NCBI RefSeq assembly: GCF_013409345.1
Contig: NZ_JACCBB010000001.1
Span: 248,001-312,000, forward strand
From: Kineococcus aurantiacus
GTDB taxonomy: Bacteria; Actinomycetota; Actinomycetes; Actinomycetales; Kineococcaceae
DNA: 64,000 bases
Reading direction: 5' to 3'
Below, piece by piece: positions 7,722 to 43,417 of the stretch. Position numbers and translations under genes: made by a program. The notes under the pieces are model-generated. The model searched no databases. It saw only the letters and a list, made by a program, of their open reading frames with translations, and was not told the origin of the DNA. The stretch's first letter is position 1. Each line of letters begins with the position of its first letter.

Positions 7722-9743
7722 TCAGTCGAGGAGCTCCCCCGTGGCCGTGTTCACGGCCGGTTCGCCGGCCCCTGCGGCGCCGGCGAGCGCCTCCACGACG
7801 GCGGCCGCGGTCCGCGGGCCCATGCCGGGGACGGCGGCGACCTCCTCGGCGGTGGCCGCGCGCAGCCGCTTGACGGAGCCGAAGTGCTTGAGCAGGGCGC
7901 TCTTGCGGGCCTGGCCGAGGCCGGGGACGCCGTCGAGGGCCGAGGTCGTCATGGCCTTGGAGCGCTTGGCGCGGTGGTACGTGATCGCGAAGCGGTGGGC
8001 CTCGTCGCGCACGCGCTGGAGCAGGAACAGGCCCTGGCTGGTGCGCGGCAGGACGACGGGGTGGTCCTCCCCGGGCAGCCACACCTCCTCGAGGCGCTTG
8101 GCCAGGCCGCACAGGGCGACGTCGACGACGCCGACGTCGGCCAGGGCCCGGGCGGCGGCCTCGACCTGGGGGCGGCCGCCGTCGACGACGACGAGGTTGG
8201 GGGCGTAGGAGAAGCGGCGGGGCCGGCCGGTACCGGGGTCGATGCCGGCCAGGACCTCCCCGCCGACCGGGGCGGAGGTTTCCACCTCCAGGCCGTCGGC
8301 GGTCTCGGTGAGGACCCCGGCGGTGGGCCCGGGGCCGCCCTCGTCCTGGGCCAGCCGCTTGAAGCGGCGGGTGAGGACCTCGCGCATGGCCCGGGTGTCG
8401 TCGAGGCCGCCCTCGTCGCCGCGCACGGCGAAGCGGCGGTAGTCGGACTTCTTGGGCAGGCCGTCCTCGAAGACGACCATCGAGGCGACGACGTTGGTCT
8501 CCTGGGTGTGGGACACGTCGTAGCACTCGATGCGCAGCGGGGCCTCCTCCAGGCCCAGGGCCTCCTGCAGCTCGGTGAGGGCCAGGCTGCGGGTGGTGAG
8601 GTCGCCGCCGCGGCGGGTCTTGTGCAGGGCCAGGGCCTGGGTGGCGTTGCGGTGGACGGTCTCCATGAGCGCCTTCTTGTCCCCGCGCTGGGGGACGCGC
8701 AGGTCGACGCGGGACCCGCGCAGCTCCGAGAGCCAGTCCTCCACGTCGGCCTCGACGGTGGCGGGCAGGGCCGGGACGAGGACCTCGCGGGGGACGCCCT
8801 CGCCGCTCTCCCCGCCGTAGACCTGCAGCAGGAGCTGCTCGACGAGCTCGGGGGTGCCGACGTCCTCGACCTTCTCGGAGACCCAGCCGCGCTGGCCGCG
8901 CACGCGGCCGCCGCGGACGTGGAAGACCTGCACGGCCGCTTCGAGCTCGTCGTCGGCGATGGCGAAGACGTCGGCGTCGGTCGCGTCGGGCAGGACGACG
9001 GCGGACTTCTCCAGGGCCTTGGTGAGCGCGCCGAGGTCGTCGCGCAGGCGGGCGGCGCGCTCGAAGTCGAGCTCGGCGGCGGCGGCCTTCATCTCGGCCT
9101 CGGCGCGGCGCACGAAGCGGGCGGTGTTGCCGGCCATGAAGTCGCAGAAGTCCTGGGCGAGGGCCTTGTGGTCCTCGGCGGAGATCTTGCCGACGCAGGG
9201 GGCGGAGCACTTGTCGATGTAGCCCAGCAGGCAGGGCCGGCCGACCTGGCCGGCGCGCTTGTAGACGCCGGTGGAGCAGGTGCGCACGGGGAAGACGCGC
9301 AGCAGGAGGTCGACGGTCTCGCGGATGGCCCAGGCGTGGGTGTACGGGCCGAAGTAGCGGGTGCCCTTGCGCTTGGCGCCGCGCAGGACCTGCACGCGGG
9401 GCACGGCCTCGCCCATGGTGACGGCGAGGTAGGGGTAGGACTTGTCGTCGCGGTACTTGACGTTGAACCGCGGGTCGAACTCCTTGATCCAGGAGTACTC
9501 GAGCTGGAGGGCCTCGACCTCGGTGGTGACGACCGTCCACTCGACGCTGGCGGCCGTGGTGACCATGGCCATGGTGCGCGGGTGCAGGGCCGACAGGTCC
9601 TGGAAGTAGTTGGACAGCCGCGCGCGCAGGCTCTTGGCCTTGCCGACGTAGATGACGCGACCGGCCGGGTCGCGGAAGCGGTACACCCCGGGTTCGACGG
9701 GGATCTCCCCCGGCTTGGGGCGGTAGGTGGCGGGGTCGGGCAC
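7722..9743 (-). CDS. uvrC: Excinuclease ABC subunit C
   Basis: The 673-residue UvrC makes the dual incisions in nucleotide excision repair after UvrA/UvrB recognise damage. The order of domains is complete. An N-terminal GIY-YIG nuclease (PGVYRFRD ... [14 protein letters not shown]) is followed by a Cys-rich segment ([15 protein letters not shown]), a UvrB-interacting UVR helix, an RNase H-like endonuclease ([22 protein letters not shown]) and C-terminal helix-hairpin-helix repeats. The GTG start lies 6 nt after a TAGGCT box, implying a leaderless mRNA. Upstream is a weak version of the damage-promoter element seen at uvrA, uvrB and polA. Confidence 0.97.
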
Positions 9744-9749
9744 GGGACG

Positions 9750-9772
9750 AGCCTAGGTCGCGAGTCCGACGC
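9750..9772 (-). promoter_or_regulatory. Weak RecA-NDp/PafBC-like promoter of uvrC
   Basis: Minus-strand GCGTCGGAC (9772-9764), 8 nt, TAGGCT (9755-9750), 6 nt, GTG. The GTCGG core and the spacing agree with uvrA and uvrB, but the flanking bases of the element do not, so damage control here is less certain. Confidence 0.45.
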
Positions 9773-12745: not shown

Positions 12746-15718
<2,973 letters not shown>

Positions 15719-15724
15719 GCCCCA

Positions 15725-15747
15725 ACCCTAGGCGTCACCTCCGACAC
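15725..15747 (-). promoter_or_regulatory. RecA-NDp/PafBC-type promoter of uvrA
   Basis: Minus-strand GTGTCGGAG (15747-15739), exactly 8 nt, TAGGGT (15730-15725), 6 nt, GTG start of uvrA. The mycobacterial LexA-independent damage promoter is described as TTGTCRGTG-N8-TAnnnT; the element matches at 7 of 9 positions with identical spacing. The same 17 nt (GGGCTCGTGTCGGAGGT) precede uvrB. Confidence 0.75.
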
Positions 15748-15895
15748 GAGCCCCCGCGCGCCCGGCCCCGCGGCTGCGGGCGCCCCCGGGCGGTCCGCAG
15801 CGACCCCCCGTCGACGCCCCGTGGCCCCCGTCCGGGGGGTCCCGGGGGCGGCGGAGGAGGTGTCCACCTTTCGGCGGACGCTGGTAGTTGAGAGC

Positions 15896-15915
15896 AGTGC
15901 ATACGCTGAGTGCAT
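15896..15915 (+). promoter_or_regulatory. marR promoter with AGTGCAT direct repeat
   Basis: AGTGCAT occurs at 15896-15902 and 15909-15915, 13 nt apart. Between them TACGCT (15902-15907) lies 6 nt before the ATG, so the mRNA is probably leaderless. The repeat flanks the -10 box, as expected for an autoregulatory site. Confidence 0.4.
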
Positions 15916-16489
15916 GGCACCACCCGCAACGGTTATCGAAGAGTCCCCCGTCGACGACGGGTCCCCGTCCGCCCAGGCCGCGCCCCGCTGGCTGGACGAC
16001 GACGAGCAGGTCACGTGGCGCACGTTCCTGTCGACCGTCCAGCTGCTGCTGGACCGCTTCGACCGGCAGCTGCACCACGACTCCGGGATCGTGCTCACGT
16101 ACTACGAGATGCTGGTCCGCCTGTCCGAGGCGCCGCAGCGGTCGCTGCGCATGAGCGAGCTGGCCGAGTCCTCGCTGTCCTCGCGCAGCCGCGTCTCGCA
16201 CGCGGTGGCCCGCATGGAGGAGAAGGGCTGGGTGCGGCGGGACTCCTGCCCCACCGACGGGCGCGGGTTCGTCGCGGTCCTGACCGACGAGGGGTTCGCC
16301 GCGCTGGCCGCCGCCGCCCCCGGGCACGTCGAGACCGTCCGCGACGCCCTGTTCGACCAGCTCACACCCGAGCAGGTGGACCAGCTGCGGGTCATCAGCA
16401 CCGCGCTGCTGCGGCACCTGACCGACACCGGCAGCGTCCCGCCCGTCCCGGGGCTGGTCACCAGCGCGGGCGCGCCCGGGGCGCGCTGA
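15914..16489 (+). CDS. MarR-family transcriptional regulator
   Basis: The 191-residue protein has a winged helix-turn-helix of the MarR type: LTYYEMLVRLSEAPQRSLRMSELAE, the recognition helix SRSRVSHAVARMEEKGWV and the wing RDSCPTDGRGFVAVLT. It is flanked by dimerisation helices. MarR proteins are dimeric repressors that usually respond to phenolic or oxidative signals; the ligand here is unknown. It is a lone plus-strand gene between uvrA (divergent) and uvrB (convergent). The 166-195 bp between it and uvrA carry both promoters, so it could influence uvrA. The ATG was chosen from the -10 spacing. Confidence 0.85.
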   Translation: MAPPATVIEESPVDDGSPSAQAAPRWLDDDEQVTWRTFLSTVQLLLDRFDRQLHHDSGIVLTYYEMLVRLSEAPQRSLRMSELAESSLSSRSRVSHAVARMEEKGWVRRDSCPTDGRGFVAVLTDEGFAALAAAAPGHVETVRDALFDQLTPEQVDQLRVISTALLRHLTDTGSVPPVPGLVTSAGAPGAR

Positions 16490-16586
16490 CCGGTCCGGCC
16501 CGCGGGGACGACCGCTGCGGAGCCGGCCGATCAGGAGGGGACGGCCGGCCCGGAGCGCACCCCCGCCCCGGCGCGCGCGTGCAGCC

Positions 16587-16607
16587 GGCCCGGTGGGTCA
16601 CCGGGCC
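16587..16607. terminator. Hairpin between convergent marR and uvrB
   Basis: GGCCCGGTG pairs with CACCGGGCC across a 3-nt loop. It sits 20 nt from the uvrB stop and about 100 nt from the marR stop, so it mainly serves uvrB but is symmetric. Confidence 0.6.
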
Positions 16608-16627
16608 AGCCGCGGCCCCGGCGCCCC

Positions 16628-18757
16628 TCAGGCGCCCTGGGCCGCGCGCATCCCCCGCAGCTCCTTCTTGAGGTCCCCGACCTCGTCGCGCAGGCGGGCC
16701 GCCAGCTCGAACTGCAGCTCCGCGGCGGCGGAGTGCATCTGGTCGGTCAGCTCCTGGATGAGGTCGGCCAGGTCGGCCTGCGGCATGCCCCCGCGCGGCT
16801 CGGGACCGACCTCGCGCCCCACGTTCTTGCCCTTGGCCCCCTTGGCGGGGGTGGGGGCCTTGCCCCGCGACTGCGTCCGCCCGCTGCCGCCCTTGGCCGC
16901 GGCCAGCAGCTCGGCCGTGTCGGCGTCCTCGCGGGCGATGAGGTCGGTGATGTCGGCGATCCTCTTGCGCAGCGGCTGCGGGTCCACGCCGCGCTCGGTG
17001 TTGTACGCGACCTGCTTGGCGCGGCGGCGGTTCGTCTCCTCGATCGCCTCGGCCATGGACGGGGTGATCCTGTCGGCGTACATGTGCACCTGCCCGGAGA
17101 CGTTGCGGGCGGCGCGGCCGATGGTCTGGATGAGCGACTTCGCCGAGCGCAGGAACCCCTCCTTGTCGGCGTCCAGGATCGCCACGAGGGAGACCTCGGG
17201 CAGGTCCAGGCCCTCGCGCAGCAGGTTGATGCCGACGAGGACGTCGTACTCGCCCTGCCGCAGCTCGCGCAGCAGCTCCACGCGCCGCAGCGTGTCGACC
17301 TCCGAGTGCAGGTACCGCACCCGCACCCCCTGGTCGAGGAAGTAGTCGGTGAGGTCCTCGGCCATCTTCTTGGTCAGCGTGGTCACCAGCACGCGCTCGT
17401 CCTTGGCCGTGCGCAGCGAGATCTCGTGCAGCAGGTCGTCGATCTGCCCCTTCGTGGGCTTGACGACGACCTCCGGGTCGACCAGGCCCGTCGGGCGGAT
17501 GATCTGCTCGACCACGCCCCGGCCGCGCGAGAGCTCGTAGTCCCCCGGGGTCGCCGACAGGTACACGGTCTGCCCGATGCGCTCGAGGAACTCCTCCCAC
17601 CGCAGCGGCCGGTTGTCCATGGCGCTGGGCAGGCGGAACCCGAAGTCGACCAGCGTCCGCTTGCGCGACATGTCGCCCTCGTACATGGCTCCGATCTGCG
17701 GGACCGTCACGTGCGACTCGTCGATGACGAGCAGGAAGTCCTCGGGGAAGTAGTCCAGCAGCGTGTTCGAGGCCGACCCCGGCGCGCGGCCGTCCAGGTG
17801 CCGGGAGTAGTTCTCCACCCCCGAGCAGGACCCGACCTGGCGCAGCATCTCGATGTCGTACGTCGTGCGCATGCGCAGGCGCTGCGCCTCGAGCAGCTTG
17901 CCCTGCTGCTCCAGCTCGGCGAGGCGCTCGGCCAGCTCGGCCTCGATGGTGCCGATGGCCCGTTCCAGCCGCTCGGGACCGGCGACGTAGTGCGAGGCGG
18001 GGAAGACGTAGACGAGCTCCTCCTCGCGCAGCACCTCCCCCGTCAGCGGGTTCAGCGTGTACAGCTTGTCGATCTCGTCGCCGAAGAACTCGATGCGCAG
18101 CGCGTGCTCCTCGTACTGCGGGATGATCTCGACGGTGTCGCCGCGCACGCGGAACGTGCCGCGGGTGAAGGCCAGGTCGTTGCGGGTGTACTGCTCCTCG
18201 ACGAACTTGCGCAGCAGGACGTCCCGCTCGATGGTGTCGCCCACCTTCAGGGTCACCATCCGGTCGACGTACTCCTGCGGCGTGCCCAGGCCGTAGATGC
18301 ACGAGACCGTCGCCACCACGACGACGTCGCGGCGGGTCAGCAGCGAGTTCGTGGCGGAGTGCCGCAGCCGCTCGACCTCGTCGTTGATCGAGGAGTCCTT
18401 CTCGATGTAGGTGTCCGACTGCGGGACGTAGGCCTCGGGCTGGTAGTAGTCGTAGTAGGAGACGAAGTACTCGACGGCGTTGTTGGGCAGCAGCTCGCGG
18501 AACTCGTTGGCCAGCTGCGCGGCGAGGGTCTTGTTCGGTGCCATCACCAGCGTCGGGCGCTGCACCTGCTCGATGAGCCAGGCCGTCGTCGCCGACTTGC
18601 CCGTCCCGGTGGCGCCCAGCAGGACGACGTCCTGCTCCCCCGCGTCCACCCGCTTCGCCAGCTCGGCGATGGCGGCGGGCTGGTCGCCGGAGGGGGAGAA
18701 CTCGGAGACCACCTCGAAGGGGGCCACCCGGCGCTGGATCGTTGTCGTCGGCCGCAT
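16628..18757 (-). CDS. uvrB: Excinuclease ABC subunit B
   Basis: The 709-residue helicase-like UvrB loads onto damage found by UvrA and positions UvrC. It has Walker [12 protein letters not shown], the beta-hairpin that clamps DNA ([20 protein letters not shown]), DESHV, helicase motifs V and VI ([21 protein letters not shown]) and a C-terminal UVR motif ([20 protein letters not shown]). A Lys/Gly-rich low-complexity linker of about 40 residues precedes the UVR motif. The ATG start has no ribosome site but lies 7 nt after TAACCT, so translation is probably leaderless. The promoter overlaps the stop codon of coaE. Confidence 0.97.
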
Positions 18758-18764
18758 GGGCAAG

Positions 18765-18787
18765 AGGTTAGGCCGGACCTCCGACAC
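18765..18787 (-). promoter_or_regulatory. RecA-NDp/PafBC-type promoter of uvrB, inside the 3' end of coaE
   Basis: Minus-strand GTGTCGGAG (18787-18779), 8 nt, TAACCT (18770-18765), 7 nt, ATG of uvrB. The first three bases of the -10 box are the TAA stop codon of coaE. The upstream 17 nt are identical to those before uvrA. Confidence 0.75.
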
Positions 18788-19694
18788 GAGCCCGCCGCGC
18801 CGGCGGGTCGACCTCCTCCACGACCACGGCGCAGCCGGGGTCGGCGCTCGCGAACCACCCCTGACCTGCACGGACGTACCCGACGGCCCGCAGCGCGGCG
18901 TCGAGGTCACCGCCGGCGGGCGGCCGCGCGCGCTCCACGTCGAGCCGCAGCGGCCAGGAGTCCCCCGGCCGTGGGCGCACGTCGCCGCCGGTGGCCCGCG
19001 CCACCCGCCGCCGCGCCCGCTCGGCCTCGCCCGGGCCCGGGGCGCCGGGGGGCAGCGGCCCGGGGCGCCCGGCCCGCAGGCCCGCCTCGAAGGGCACCAG
19101 CCGGTCGTGCCAGAGCCGCTCGACCAGCCGCGGCAGCGGGTCGGGGGCGCTCCCGGGCGCCCGGCGGGGGTTGGGCAGCAGCACGTCGGCGGCGGCGCGC
19201 CGCTCACCGTCCGTGGCCTGCGCCGCCAGGCGCGCCCGGGCGTCGGCCTCGCTCATGCCGCGCTCGGCGACGAGGCGGCGGACCCGCTCGTCGGCCTCGG
19301 CGTCGACCACGACCACGAGCGGGTAGCCGGGCGCGGCACCCGTCTCGACCAGCAGCGGGACGTCCTCGACCACCACGGCGTCGTCGGGGGCGGCGGCGAC
19401 CAGCTCGGCCCGCCGGGCGGCCACGAGCGGGTGCACGATCGCGTCGAGGGCGGCCCGGCGTTGCGGATCACCGAAGACGACCTGCGCCAACGCGGATCGG
19501 TTGAGATCACCCTCCGTAGTCAAAATGTCATGGCCAAATTCCACGGTGATCGCGGCCAGACCAGGGGTACCCCGGGCGACGACCTCCCGGGCCAGGACGT
19601 CGGCGTCCACGAGGACCGCGCCCAGAGCGGTGAGAAGTCGAGAAACGGTGGATTTTCCCGCCCCGATTCCACCCGTCAGGCCTAGTCGCAGCAC
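18768..19694 (-). CDS. coaE: Dephospho-CoA kinase with C-terminal extension
   Basis: The first ~200 residues are CoaE, which phosphorylates dephospho-CoA in the last step of CoA synthesis. They show P-loop [27 protein letters not shown] and the usual ending [17 protein letters not shown] further ~100 residues follow. Many actinobacterial CoaE proteins carry a C-terminal GrpB/UPF0157 domain; this tail is short and only vaguely similar ([15 protein letters not shown]), so I read it as a reduced version. The GTG start lies 6 nt after TATGGT. Its 5' end and upstream DNA are less GC-rich than their surroundings. Confidence 0.93.
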
Positions 19695-40597: not shown

Positions 40598-43387
40598 CTA
40601 GTGCCCCGCCTCGTGCCAGCTGCGGCCGACCCCCACGGACACGTCCAGCGGCACCGCGAGGTCGGCGGCCCCGGCCATCGTCGAGCGCACCAGCGCCTCC
40701 AGCGCCTCCCGCTCCCCCGCTGCGACCTCCAGGACCAGCTCGTCGTGCACCTGCAGCAGCAGCCGGGACCGCAGGCCGCTCTCGCGCAGCCCCGCGTCCA
40801 GGTCGAGCATCGCCACCTTGATGATGTCGGCCGCGCTGCCCTGGATGGGGGCGTTGAGGGCCATCCGCTCGGCCATCTCCCGGCGCTGCCGGTTGTCGCT
40901 GGCCAGGTCGGGCAGGTACCGGCGCCGGCCCAGGATGGTCTCGGTCCAGCCCGTGCGGCGGGCCTGCTCGACGACGCCGTACAGGTAGTCGCGCACCCCG
41001 CCGAAGCGCTCGAAGTAGTCGTCCATGAGGCCCTTGGCCTCCTCGGTGGAGATCTTCAGCTGGTTCGACAGGCCGAAGGCCGACAACCCGTACGCCAGGC
41101 CGTAGGACATCGCCTTGATCTTGGCGCGCATCTCGGGCGTGACGTCCGCCGGCGCGACCCCGAAGACGCGGCTGCCCACGAAGCGGTGCAGGTCCTCCCC
41201 GGAGGTGAAGGCCGCGATGAGGCCCTCGTCCTGGGACAGGTGCGCCATGATCCGCATCTCGATCTGGGAGTAGTCCGCGGTGAGCAGGCACTCGAACCCG
41301 TCGTCGGAGCCGACGACGAAGGCCTGCCGGATGCGCCGGCCCTCCTCGGTGCGGATCGGGATGTTCTGCAGGTTCGGGTCGGTCGAGGACAACCGGCCGG
41401 TCGCGGCGATCATCTGCTGGTAGGTGGTGTGGATGCGCCCGTCGTCGGCGACGGACTTGCGCAGCCCCTCGACGGTCTGCCGCAGCCGGGAGGCGTCGCG
41501 GTGCTCCAGCAGGTGGGCCAGGAACGGGTGCTCGGTCTTGACGAACAGCGCCGCGAGCGCGTCGGCGTCGGTGGTGTAGCCCGTCTTGGTCCGCTTGGTC
41601 TTGGGCATCTGCAGCTGCTCGAACAGCACCGTCTGCAGCTGCTTGGGGGAGCCGAGGTTGATCTCGGTGCCGATGACCTCGTAGGCCAGCGACTGGGCCT
41701 GGGCGACGCGGTCGGCGAAGTGCTCCTCCAGGTCGGCCAGGAGCACGCCGTCGACGGCGACCCCGACCCGCTCCTGGCGGGCCAGGACGTCCACCAGCGG
41801 CAGCTCCACGTCGGCCAGCAGCTGCGTCCCGCCGCGCTCGGACAGCTCCACGGCCAGGACGCCGGCCAGCTCGGAGATCGCCAGCGCGCGCACCATGCCC
41901 TCCTCGGCGCGGGCCTGCAGGTCCCCGCCGACGGGGCCGTCGCCGCCGTCGAGCGTCAGCTGCTCGTCCGCCGGGGCCGCCGGCAGCGACCCCTCGGCGC
42001 GCAGCTCGCGCTTGAGGTGGCGCACGGCGAGGTCGGCCAGGTCGTAGCTGCGCTGGTCGGGCCGGCACAGGTACGCCGCGAGCGCGGTGTCGAACACGAC
42101 CCCGGCCAGCTCCCAGCCGCGGGCCAGGAGCGCGTGGGAGGGGCCCTTGACGTCGTGGGCGACCTTGGGGCGGTCGGCGTCGGCGAGCCAGGCGACCAGG
42201 GCCCGCTCGTCGCCCGGCTCGATCGTCACCGGGTCGACCCAGGCGGCCACGCCGTCGGCGCCCGCCAGCGCCAGGCCGGTGACCTCACCGGTGCCGCGGC
42301 CCCACTCCCCCTGCACGTGCAGCCCCGTGCGGCCCGTGGCGTGCTCGTCCAGCCAGGGGCCGACCTCCCCGGCCAGCAGGACGGCGCCGTCGACGCCGAA
42401 CCCCTCCTCGGCCTCGGGCTCGGCCGACTCCAGGGTGGCGAAGAGGCGGTCGCGCAGGACGCGGAACTCCAGGCCGTCGAAGACGGTGTGGACCTGCTCG
42501 CGGTCCCAGGCCCGGCGCAGCAGCTCCGGGACGGTGGTGTCCAGGCTCAGGTCCGTGACCAGGGCGTTGAGCCGGCGGTTGCGGATGACGGAGTCGAGGT
42601 GGGCGCGCAGGTTCTCCCCCGCCTTGCCCTTGACGAGGTCGGCGTGGGCGATGACGCCGTCGAGGCCGTCGTACTCGCCGATCCACTTGGCGGCGGTCTT
42701 GGCCCCCACGCCGGGCACGCCGGGGAGGTTGTCGGAGGTCTCCCCCACGAGCGCGGCGAGGTCGGGGTACCGCTGCGGCGGGACGCCGTACTTGGCCTCC
42801 ACGGCCTCGGGAGTCATGCGGGACAGCTCCGAGACGCCCTTGACGGGGTACAGGACGGTCACCTCGGGCCGGACGAGCTGGAGGGCGTCGCGGTCGCCGG
42901 TGCAGACGAGGACGTCGAAGTCCTGGGCGACGGCCTGGGTGGTGAGGGTGGCGATGACGTCGTCGGCCTCGTAGCCCTCCTTCTCCACCACGGGCACGCG
43001 CAGCGCGGCGAGCACCTCCTTGACCAGCTCGACCTGGCCGCGGAACTCGTCGGGGCTCTTGGTGCGGGTGCCCTTGTACTCGGGGTAGGCCTCGGTGCGG
43101 AAGGAGTGGCGCGAGACGTCGAAGGTGACGGCGAAGTGGGTGGGGTCCTCGTCGCGCAGCAGGTTGATGAGCATCGAGGTGAAGCCGTAGACGGCGTTCG
43201 TCGGCTGCCCGGTGGTCGTGGCGAAGTTGCCGACCGGCAGGGCGTAGAAGGCGCGGTAGGCCATCGAGTGCCCGTCGATGAGCAGCAGCCGGGGCCGCGT
43301 CGGTGCGGCCTTCGCGGTCCGGGCCGCCGCGGCGGTCGTGGCGGCGGTGCGGGGAGCGGCTGCTCTGCGGGCAGCGGGCGGTGTCAC
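40598..43387 (-). CDS. polA: DNA polymerase I
   Basis: The 929-residue enzyme fills gaps in replication and excision repair. The N-terminal 5'-nuclease domain starts at LLLIDGHSMAYRAFYALP and has the VEKEGYEADDVIATL and GVGAKTAAKW blocks. The middle exonuclease domain lacks the catalytic DxE (reads VQGEWG), so proofreading is lost, as usual in actinobacteria. The polymerase domain has DYSQIEMR, the O-helix KAMSYGLAYGLS and VHDELVLE. The start is a GTG 11 codons inside the longest frame, chosen because TACCCT lies 7 nt upstream and the damage-type promoter element precedes it at the exact spacing of uvrA and uvrB. Confidence 0.96.
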   Translation of the reverse strand: MTPPAARRAAAPRTAATTAAAARTAKAAPTRPRLLLIDGHSMAYRAFYALPVGNFATTTGQPTNAVYGFTSMLINLLRDEDPTHFAVTFDVSRHSFRTEAYPEYKGTRTKSPDEFRGQVELVKEVLAALRVPVVEKEGYEADDVIATLTTQAVAQDFDVLVCTGDRDALQLVRPEVTVLYPVKGVSELSRMTPEAVEAKYGVPPQRYPDLAALVGETSDNLPGVPGVGAKTAAKWIGEYDGLDGVIAHADLVKGKAGENLRAHLDSVIRNRRLNALVTDLSLDTTVPELLRRAWDREQVHTVFDGLEFRVLRDRLFATLESAEPEAEEGFGVDGAVLLAGEVGPWLDEHATGRTGLHVQGEWGRGTGEVTGLALAGADGVAAWVDPVTIEPGDERALVAWLADADRPKVAHDVKGPSHALLARGWELAGVVFDTALAAYLCRPDQRSYDLADLAVRHLKRELRAEGSLPAAPADEQLTLDGGDGPVGGDLQARAEEGMVRALAISELAGVLAVELSERGGTQLLADVELPLVDVLARQERVGVAVDGVLLADLEEHFADRVAQAQSLAYEVIGTEINLGSPKQLQTVLFEQLQMPKTKRTKTGYTTDADALAALFVKTEHPFLAHLLEHRDASRLRQTVEGLRKSVADDGRIHTTYQQMIAATGRLSSTDPNLQNIPIRTEEGRRIRQAFVVGSDDGFECLLTADYSQIEMRIMAHLSQDEGLIAAFTSGEDLHRFVGSRVFGVAPADVTPEMRAKIKAMSYGLAYGLSAFGLSNQLKISTEEAKGLMDDYFERFGGVRDYLYGVVEQARRTGWTETILGRRRYLPDLASDNRQRREMAERMALNAPIQGSAADIIKVAMLDLDAGLRESGLRSRLLLQVHDELVLEVAAGEREALEALVRSTMAGAADLAVPLDVSVGVGRSWHEAGH

Positions 43388-43394
43388 GTCCGCC

Positions 43395-43417
43395 AGGGTA
43401 GTCAGCTCCCCCGACAC
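43395..43417 (-). promoter_or_regulatory. RecA-NDp/PafBC-type promoter of polA
   Basis: Minus-strand GTGTCGGGG (43417-43409), exactly 8 nt, TACCCT (43400-43395), 7 nt, GTG. The element matches TTGTCRGTG at 7 of 9 positions. It sits in the 59-bp gap after the GNAT gene. Confidence 0.7.

What the first reader, a model, noticed from the sequence alone, without database searches (positions are those of the whole stretch)
15725..18793. Identical damage-type promoter element upstream of uvrA and uvrB
The minus strand carries the same 17 nt, GGGCTCGTGTCGGAGGT, before both genes (15753-15737 and 18793-18777). In both, GTGTCGGAG is followed by exactly 8 nt and a TAnnnT box (TAGGGT, TAACCT), then 6 or 7 nt to the start codon. 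The sequence downstream of the 17 nt differs, so this is not a recent duplication of the gene start. Established knowledge: mycobacterial LexA-independent DNA-damage promoters (RecA-NDp, bound through PafBC) have TTGTCRGTG-N8-TAnnnT. Inference: this lineage uses PafBC-type control for nucleotide excision repair.
Basis: partly seen in the sequence, partly recalled or inferred. Interest (0 to 1): 0.78.

Follow-up and report, generated by a model that had tools for sequence, protein, structure and literature searches.

The report
PafBC-type damage promoters on repair genes
Two DNA-repair genes of this actinobacterium carry the same promoter sequence that mycobacteria are known to use to switch on DNA repair after damage, so this is most likely a known control system found in one more genus.

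Summary
In detail: GGGCTCGTGTCGGAGGT precedes uvrA and uvrB, then TAnnnT at fixed spacing and a start codon 6-7 nt on. The inference is well supported by sequence; there are no expression data. TGTCGG-N10-TAnnnT is the published PafBC motif. The genome has 21 sites, reversed pattern 2; nine of 21 precede core replication/repair genes (recA, uvrA, uvrB, polA, mfd, recO, recR, ruvA, dnaG). Four congeners have 80 against 4. pafB and pafC lie by pafA, about 100 kb from uvrA. No SOS box (up to one mismatch) was found around the uvrA and uvrB sites. The exact leaderless promoter precedes uvrB in 18 of 29 loci with UvrB at least 66% identical, and in 0 of 49 more distant ones. Two Bifidobacterium genomes lack PafC and motif excess.

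Corrections: the 17-mer is near the genus consensus of the site (15 of 17 bases), so its identity is not extra evidence; the promoter is spread over many actinomycete families; PafBC control of UvrABC is in print for M. smegmatis. Misfits: Corynebacterium has PafC without motif excess, as do several families outside the class.

The parts
15725..15746 (-). uvrA promoter: TGTCGG (-26 type, 15746-15741), N10, TAGGGT (-10 type, 15730-15725)
   Evidence: best-scoring site of the window with a matrix made from 80 congener sites (33.8 bits; largest of 20 random sequences 17.4)
12746..15718 (-). uvrA, GTG start 6 nt after TAGGGT (predicted leaderless)
   Evidence: NF001503, 1582.6 bits against cut-off 1147
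18765..18786 (-). uvrB promoter: TGTCGG (18786-18781), N10, TAACCT (18770-18765); its TAA is also the stop codon of coaE
   Evidence: second-best site (28.0 bits)
16628..18757 (-). uvrB, ATG start 7 nt after TAACCT (predicted leaderless)
   Evidence: NF003673, 1068.6 bits against cut-off 743
15737..15753 (-). the shared 17-mer before uvrA
18777..18793 (-). the shared 17-mer before uvrB
43395..43416 (-). third exact site, before polA: TGTCGG-N10-TACCCT, GTG 7 nt later
   Evidence: third-best site (21.0 bits)
41897..43387 (-). polA, N-terminal 497 codons (the part examined)
   Evidence: NF004397 E 4.4e-121, 406 bits; partial sequence, below the full-length cut-off of 720 (L004:3-1493)
9750..9771 (-). 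candidate uvrC promoter: CGTCGG-N10-TAGGCT, GTG 6 nt later; one base off the motif
   Evidence: 10.8 bits, within the random range and behind two other window sites (24163, 24184); congener G647 has the exact motif at uvrC
8241..9743 (-). uvrC, part examined
   Evidence: tblastn 91% identity to the G647 UvrC; Pfam UvrC_RNaseH E 6.2e-36
18768..19694 (-). coaE, upstream of uvrB; its 3' end overlaps the uvrB promoter
   Evidence: PF01121 E 3e-55 on residues 4-175 of 308
15914..16489 (+). MarR-family gene between uvrB and uvrA, divergent from uvrA
   Evidence: PF12802 E 1.2e-11

Best explanation
The element is a PafBC-dependent (RecA-NDp type) promoter. On DNA damage, single-stranded DNA activates the PafB-PafC heterodimer. 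PafB then reads TGTCGG at about -26, and PafC bridges to domain 4 of the housekeeping sigma factor in place of a -35 box. RNA polymerase starts a few bases after TAnnnT, at or near the start codon, giving leaderless uvrA and uvrB mRNAs. NER is thus induced together with recA, polA, mfd, recO, recR and ruvA; at uvrA and uvrB no LexA box is seen, so this control should not need LexA. Shown here: motif, fixed spacing, target set, conservation, and PafB/PafC homologues. Inferred from the mycobacterial work: ssDNA trigger, contacts, induction and start sites in this organism.
For: Exact published motif TGTCGG-10N-TA-3N-T (PMC8151990 section 17). 21 against 2 reversed-pattern sites in the genome. 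Five genomes of the genus: N10 102 sites, N8-9 4, N11-12 8. Targets named by HMM. Start codon 6-7 nt after the box in 55 of 100 sites against about 4.4% at random positions. pafA, pafB, pafC at C1:165.4-171.5 kb; PafB vs 9fnd_X E 1.9e-68 and vs 6sj9_A (titled PafBC) 2.2e-64, PafC vs 6sj9_A 4.8e-66 and 7p5x_AX (titled PafC) 1.7e-58. No SOS box within one mismatch in the 320 nt examined at uvrA and at uvrB. uvrB promoter in 18 of 29 loci of at least 66% identity, 0 of 49 others. Congeners: uvrA 4 of 4, recA 4 of 4, uvrB 3 of 4. Two Bifidobacterium genomes lack PafC and motif excess.
Against: No expression or binding data. Corynebacterium gottingense has PafC (E 3.6e-32) but 5 sites against 5 control. 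G411 has no PafC hit but 15 against 2; G616 (14 against 6) and the Rothia genome (weak PafC, 14 against 4) also lean to excess. Families f12, f19, f20 and f50 (40 genomes outside the class, 39 with a PF19187 hit) show no clear motif excess. 12 of 21 own sites precede genes that are not core replication/repair genes. At uvrB the motif overlaps the coaE frame. 11 of 29 uvrB loci lack the exact motif, and uvrA has it in 5 of 10 such loci.
Confidence: 0.9

Rival explanations
1. A PafBC-type -26/-10 promoter, but read by another WYL regulator of the genome rather than by PafBC itself.
For: PF13280 rings at 9 places in the genome. M. smegmatis has a second damage-related WYL activator, SiwR (PMC10693628, abstract start in the listing). 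PafC-like proteins outside the class do not predict the motif.
Against: The motif is that published for PafBC, and the own PafB and PafC match the solved PafBC chains over nearly full length. Motif excess is lower where PafC is weak or absent (18 strong against 9 weak or none, genomes chosen and grouped by me, Mann-Whitney p 0.008).
Confidence: 0.05
2. An ordinary SigA promoter with an extended upstream consensus, not damage-regulated.
For: TAnnnT is a plain -10 type box, and some targets (dnaG, dprE1, the clpC-like gene) look like housekeeping genes.
Against: About 15-28 sites per genus genome; exact 10-nt spacing; many repair genes; no TTGACA-like hexamer in positions -22 to -1 of the logo.
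Confidence: 0.02
3. Shared sequence by recent duplication or gene conversion between the two gene starts, without regulatory meaning.
For: 17 identical bases 3 kb apart.
Against: Downstream sequence differs; the 17-mer is near the genus consensus; both sites recur in congeners and the uvrB site in many families.
Confidence: 0.01
4. LexA control of uvrA/uvrB as in many bacteria.
For: LexA binds the uvrA promoter in S. venezuelae (PMC9380542, passages).
Against: No GAACN4GTTC among the listed places between C1:110413 and C1:367466 and none with one mismatch in the 320 nt examined at uvrA and at uvrB.
Confidence: 0.02

Closest known systems
PafBC-dependent promoter (RecA-NDp, P1) of Mycobacterium smegmatis / M. 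tuberculosis
   Same: TGTCRG-N10-TAnnnT before recA and repair genes; PafBC genes near pafA; UvrABC in the regulon (PMC8223512, PMC8151990, passages and one section)
   Different: Flanks GTGTCGGAGG rather than TTGTCRGTG; R is G in 94 of 100 sites. Mycobacterial recA is under PafBC and SOS; here the recA region has only a one-mismatch box, GAACACGTGTAC, 85 nt upstream of the motif
RecA-NDp promoter of Streptomyces coelicolor recA and SCO6735
   Same: Same promoter class; SCO6735 is UV-inducible (PMC5087735, passages)
   Different: Different genes; the passages I saw do not mention PafBC
LexA/SOS box
   Same: Controls overlapping repair genes elsewhere
   Different: Different sequence; not found at uvrA and uvrB here

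Membership tests
PafBC-dependent (RecA-NDp) promoter | TGTCRG -26 element | tested here: met
   exact at uvrA, uvrB, polA
PafBC-dependent (RecA-NDp) promoter | 10-nt spacer to TAnnnT, strict | tested here: met
   (genus-wide only gaps 8-12 were counted)
PafBC-dependent (RecA-NDp) promoter | no canonical -35 hexamer | tested here: met
   logo of 100 sites shows no TTGACA-like hexamer at -22 to -1 before TGTCRG
PafBC-dependent (RecA-NDp) promoter | regulon rich in DNA repair genes incl. recA | tested here: met
   9 of 21 own sites; no background gene set was counted
PafBC-dependent (RecA-NDp) promoter | pafB and pafC present, near the Pup-proteasome genes | tested here: met
PafBC-dependent (RecA-NDp) promoter | transcription start just after TAnnnT | not testable with these tools
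   only start-codon geometry seen
PafBC-dependent (RecA-NDp) promoter | damage induction that needs PafBC | not testable with these tools
   no expression data
PafBC-dependent (RecA-NDp) promoter | motif goes with presence of PafC across genomes | tested here: inconclusive
   59 of 59 class genomes of the phylum sample have both; two Bifidobacterium genomes lack both; Corynebacterium, G411 and families f12/f19/f20/f50 do not fit
LexA SOS promoter | GAACN4GTTC box at the promoter | tested here: not met
   none at uvrA or uvrB up to one mismatch in the regions examined

The most novel reading that the evidence does not exclude
A leaderless PafBC promoter on uvrB is the ancestral wiring of nucleotide excision repair in the whole class Actinomycetes, Streptomycetaceae included. 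Acidimicrobiia keep it with a changed -26 element (TGTCAC), and Bifidobacterium, without PafC, has uvrB under LexA instead. In the genus studied here (Kineococcus by inference), recA and NER would then depend mainly on PafBC rather than on SOS.
Probability: 0.4. Interest if true: 0.55.

Novelty: new member of a known kind. Interest (0 to 1): 0.38.

Why it matters
PafBC control has been worked out in mycobacteria. A paper on Streptomyces venezuelae says that an initial search suggested the motif is not conserved there and leaves a LexA-independent response open (PMC9380542, passages). The exact uvrB promoter in the streptomycete Peterkaempfera griseoplana (L049) and counts of 1591 against 167 in 19 genomes of one unnamed genus with 6-11 Mb genomes (Streptomyces by inference only) suggest that the response is wider. 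The site list also gives concrete targets to test in a genus that, if it is Kineococcus, includes the radiation-resistant K. radiotolerans.

Tried and rejected
Duplication of the gene start: rejected because the downstream sequence differs and the 17-mer is near the genus consensus. LexA control of uvrA/uvrB: no box. PafC family as a predictor of the motif: tried phylum-wide, does not hold outside the class. uvrC as a further member: geometry fits, but the score is in the random range and two other window sites score higher; left as a candidate. TGTCAG variant in the own genome: 1 site against 1 control, no excess.

Rows dropped and choices made: one search used 100 of 102 genus sites (the own TGTCAG site was not given; one lies too near a contig end). 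One search kept the best 80 of 588 candidates. Two of the 80 (L051, L066) lack enough upstream DNA for uvrB. I split the other 78, at UvrB identity 66% or more (29 loci, several of them unnamed MAGs) and 63% or less (49 loci; among these L088, titled Actinomycetes, and L079, titled Bifidobacterium breve). In one search the six outside families (57 of 336 same-phylum genomes outside the class) were chosen. The genomes were chosen for their PafC status or uvrB locus. L058 was not held. The random scan looked only at positions that begin with TG or hold GTC at the second place. Own target genes at L020 (no NCBIfam family, not run in Pfam) and L021 (no Pfam family) stay without a firm name. In one search, 2 of 10 congener proteins (L180, L163) had no family at the 1e-25 limit used.
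Full report
Observation. Both copies of GGGCTCGTGTCGGAGGT are where stated, with TGTCGG-N10-TAnnnT and a start codon 6 or 7 nt on. None of 100 shuffles holds one exact 17-mer, though with 3 mismatches allowed two copies are common in shuffles (26 of 100). The structured motif is the better test: 3 sites, shuffle mean 0.04, 0 of 100 shuffles reach 3. UvrA and UvrB are confirmed. The third site precedes polA at 43416-43395. uvrC, at 9743, has the same layout with one base off in the -26 element; congener G647 has the exact motif there.

The genome. The window lies in a 5.03 Mb, two-contig genome (contigs 4.85 and 0.17 Mb). No call named the organism. I infer Kineococcus from this layout and from the gene order uvrB, one gene, uvrA, then uvrC, which fits the tags Krad_2942, 2940 and 2935 of K. 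radiotolerans (PMC2587704, passages). TGTCGG-N10-TAnnnT occurs 21 times, the reversed pattern 2 times.

The 21 sites precede, in genome order: DUF3099, uvrA, uvrB, polA, ruvA, a carotenoid-synthesis (CruF-like) gene, dnaG, recO, napA/DUF3263, a DrrA-type ABC ATPase gene, a clpC-like gene, an MFS-like gene, recR, dprE1, a SNF2 helicase gene, mfd, a GNAT-domain gene, recA, a SWIM-domain gene, a DNA-methyltransferase-like frame and an unnamed frame. polA and mfd are partial sequences that score below full-length cut-offs; clpC and the methyltransferase are named by eye; the MFS gene and CruF fall below NCBIfam cut-offs (the carotenoid Pfam model is passed). Nine of 21 are core replication, repair or recombination genes.

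Spacing and geometry. In five genomes of the genus, own included, N10 gives 102 sites, N8-9 together 4, N11-12 together 8; reversed-pattern controls are 7, 22 and 15. In 100 of the 102 sites, the first ATG/GTG lies 6 or 7 nt after the box in 55, against about 4.4% at random positions. The commonest bases read GTGTCGGAGG, with G before TGTCRG in 79 and A after it in 52.

Conservation in the genus. Four congeners hold 80 sites against 4 reversed. uvrA, recA and a drrA-like gene carry the site in 4 of 4, uvrB in 3 of 4, clpC in 3 of 4; three of the four are assemblies in many contigs, so a miss may be a gap. Further targets there: uvrC, radA, xthA, a DEDD exonuclease and dnaX above a cut-off; pcrA (partial), photolyase-like and ssb-like genes below. 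A matrix from the congener sites alone ranks uvrA, uvrB and polA first, second and third in the window (33.8, 28.0, 21.0 bits); the best of 20 random 64 kb sequences is 17.4.

Across named records. Of the 80 uvrB loci kept, 2 lack upstream DNA. Among the 29 with UvrB at least 66% identical, 18 have the exact motif, all 18 with the start codon 6-7 nt on; among the 49 at 63% or less, none. Two more of the 29 (Saccharothrix, Hamadaea) are one base off at the same place, as are L077, L078 and L086 of the 49, with TGTCAC or TGTCGC. TGTCAC is a variant reported for M. tuberculosis (PMC8151990 section 17). Shifted spacers N9 and N11 give none in these regions. At uvrA the exact motif is in 5 of 10 loci of the closer group that reach uvrA, and in 0 of 28 of the others.

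Regulator. pafB, pafC and pafA lie at C1:165.4-171.5 kb. PafB matches chain 9fnd_X at 1.9e-68 (titled transcriptional regulator-like protein; M. smegmatis PafB by my recall) and 6sj9_A, titled PafBC, at 2.2e-64; PafC matches 6sj9_A at 4.8e-66 and 7p5x_AX, titled PafC, at 1.7e-58. In the class sample, 292 of 295 genomes have a PafC HTH hit. In 59 of 59 class genomes of the phylum sample, own left out, the motif exceeds control, 3289 against 542 in sum. Two Bifidobacterium genomes have no PafC hit and no excess (9 against 13, 9 against 8), and GAACN4GTTC lies upstream of uvrB, at -47 and -183 from the estimated start.

Results that do not fit. Corynebacterium gottingense has PafC but 5 against 5. 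G411 has no PafC hit but 15 against 2. The other genomes without or with weak PafC gave 14 against 6 (G616), 13 against 9 (G438), 13 against 6 (G622), 16 against 10 (G468), 15 against 10 (Mobiluncus), 14 against 4 (Rothia). Outside the class, f18 (216 against 28) and f51 (194 against 37) show an excess, while f12 (67 against 70), f19 (43 against 29), f20 (19 against 22) and f50 (30 against 45) do not, though PF19187 rings in 39 of those 40 genomes. So PafC presence alone does not predict the motif; the -26 element may have drifted, or PF19187 may catch other WYL proteins.

LexA. The strict SOS box occurs at 65 places; among the listed ones none is near uvrA, uvrB or recA. With one mismatch allowed, none lies in the 320 nt examined around the uvrA and uvrB sites; recA has GAACACGTGTAC 85 nt upstream of its motif and ruvA has GTACACGTGTTC within its promoter region, so weak LexA input there is not excluded. 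Whether lexA is present in this genome was not tested.

Mechanism. From PMC11804915 (abstract and passages): ssDNA binds PafBC, the PafB HTH engages the -26 motif, the PafC HTH interacts with SigA domain 4. PMC8223512 (passages) puts UvrABC in the M. smegmatis regulon and says recA, uvrA and uvrC are under both systems; PMC5656591 (passages) reports uvrB expression down 37% without pafBC. Everything about induction in the present organism is inference.

Print status. I saw listings only: 40 of 49 papers for PafBC, 15 of 25 for a Kineococcus combination and 15 of 15 for Streptomyces with PafBC. No title or abstract start there is about PafBC sites in Kineococcus; PMC11164402 holds both words and was not read. 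PMC9380542 (passages) states the motif seemed not conserved in S. venezuelae, while PMC5087735 (passages) shows RecA-NDp in S. coelicolor. Gamulin 2004 and Muller 2018 were not seen; I know them through these papers.

Verdict. The system is a known kind, found here in one more genus, with a list of candidate targets.

Noticed in passing
18765-18786: The uvrB -10 box TAACCT contains the stop codon of coaE, so the uvrB promoter is embedded in the 3' end of the upstream reading frame.
   Followed up: partly
L071, L072 (Bifidobacterium uvrB loci): GAACN4GTTC upstream of uvrB where PafC and the PafBC motif are not found: possibly uvrB under LexA instead of PafBC.
   Followed up: partly
L077, L086, L081 (loci of the 49 more distant ones): TGTCAC or TGCCAC-N10-TAnnnT 6-7 nt before an in-frame start of uvrB: possibly a changed -26 element in Acidimicrobiia; the class of L077 is not given.
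   Followed up: no
L006 (C1:623351-623372): A carotenoid-synthesis (CruF-like) gene carries the motif, with TGTCGGAGG once more just upstream in the own genome; the gene also has the site in congener G647 (L187).
   Followed up: partly
L073 (Corynebacterium gottingense uvrB): A TAnnnT box 7 nt before an ATG is kept but the -26 position reads GTTGGG, although the genome has PafC.
   Followed up: partly
L015, L019 (C1:3539475, C1:4608203): A SNF2 helicase gene and a SWIM-domain gene, far apart here, both carry the motif.
   Followed up: no
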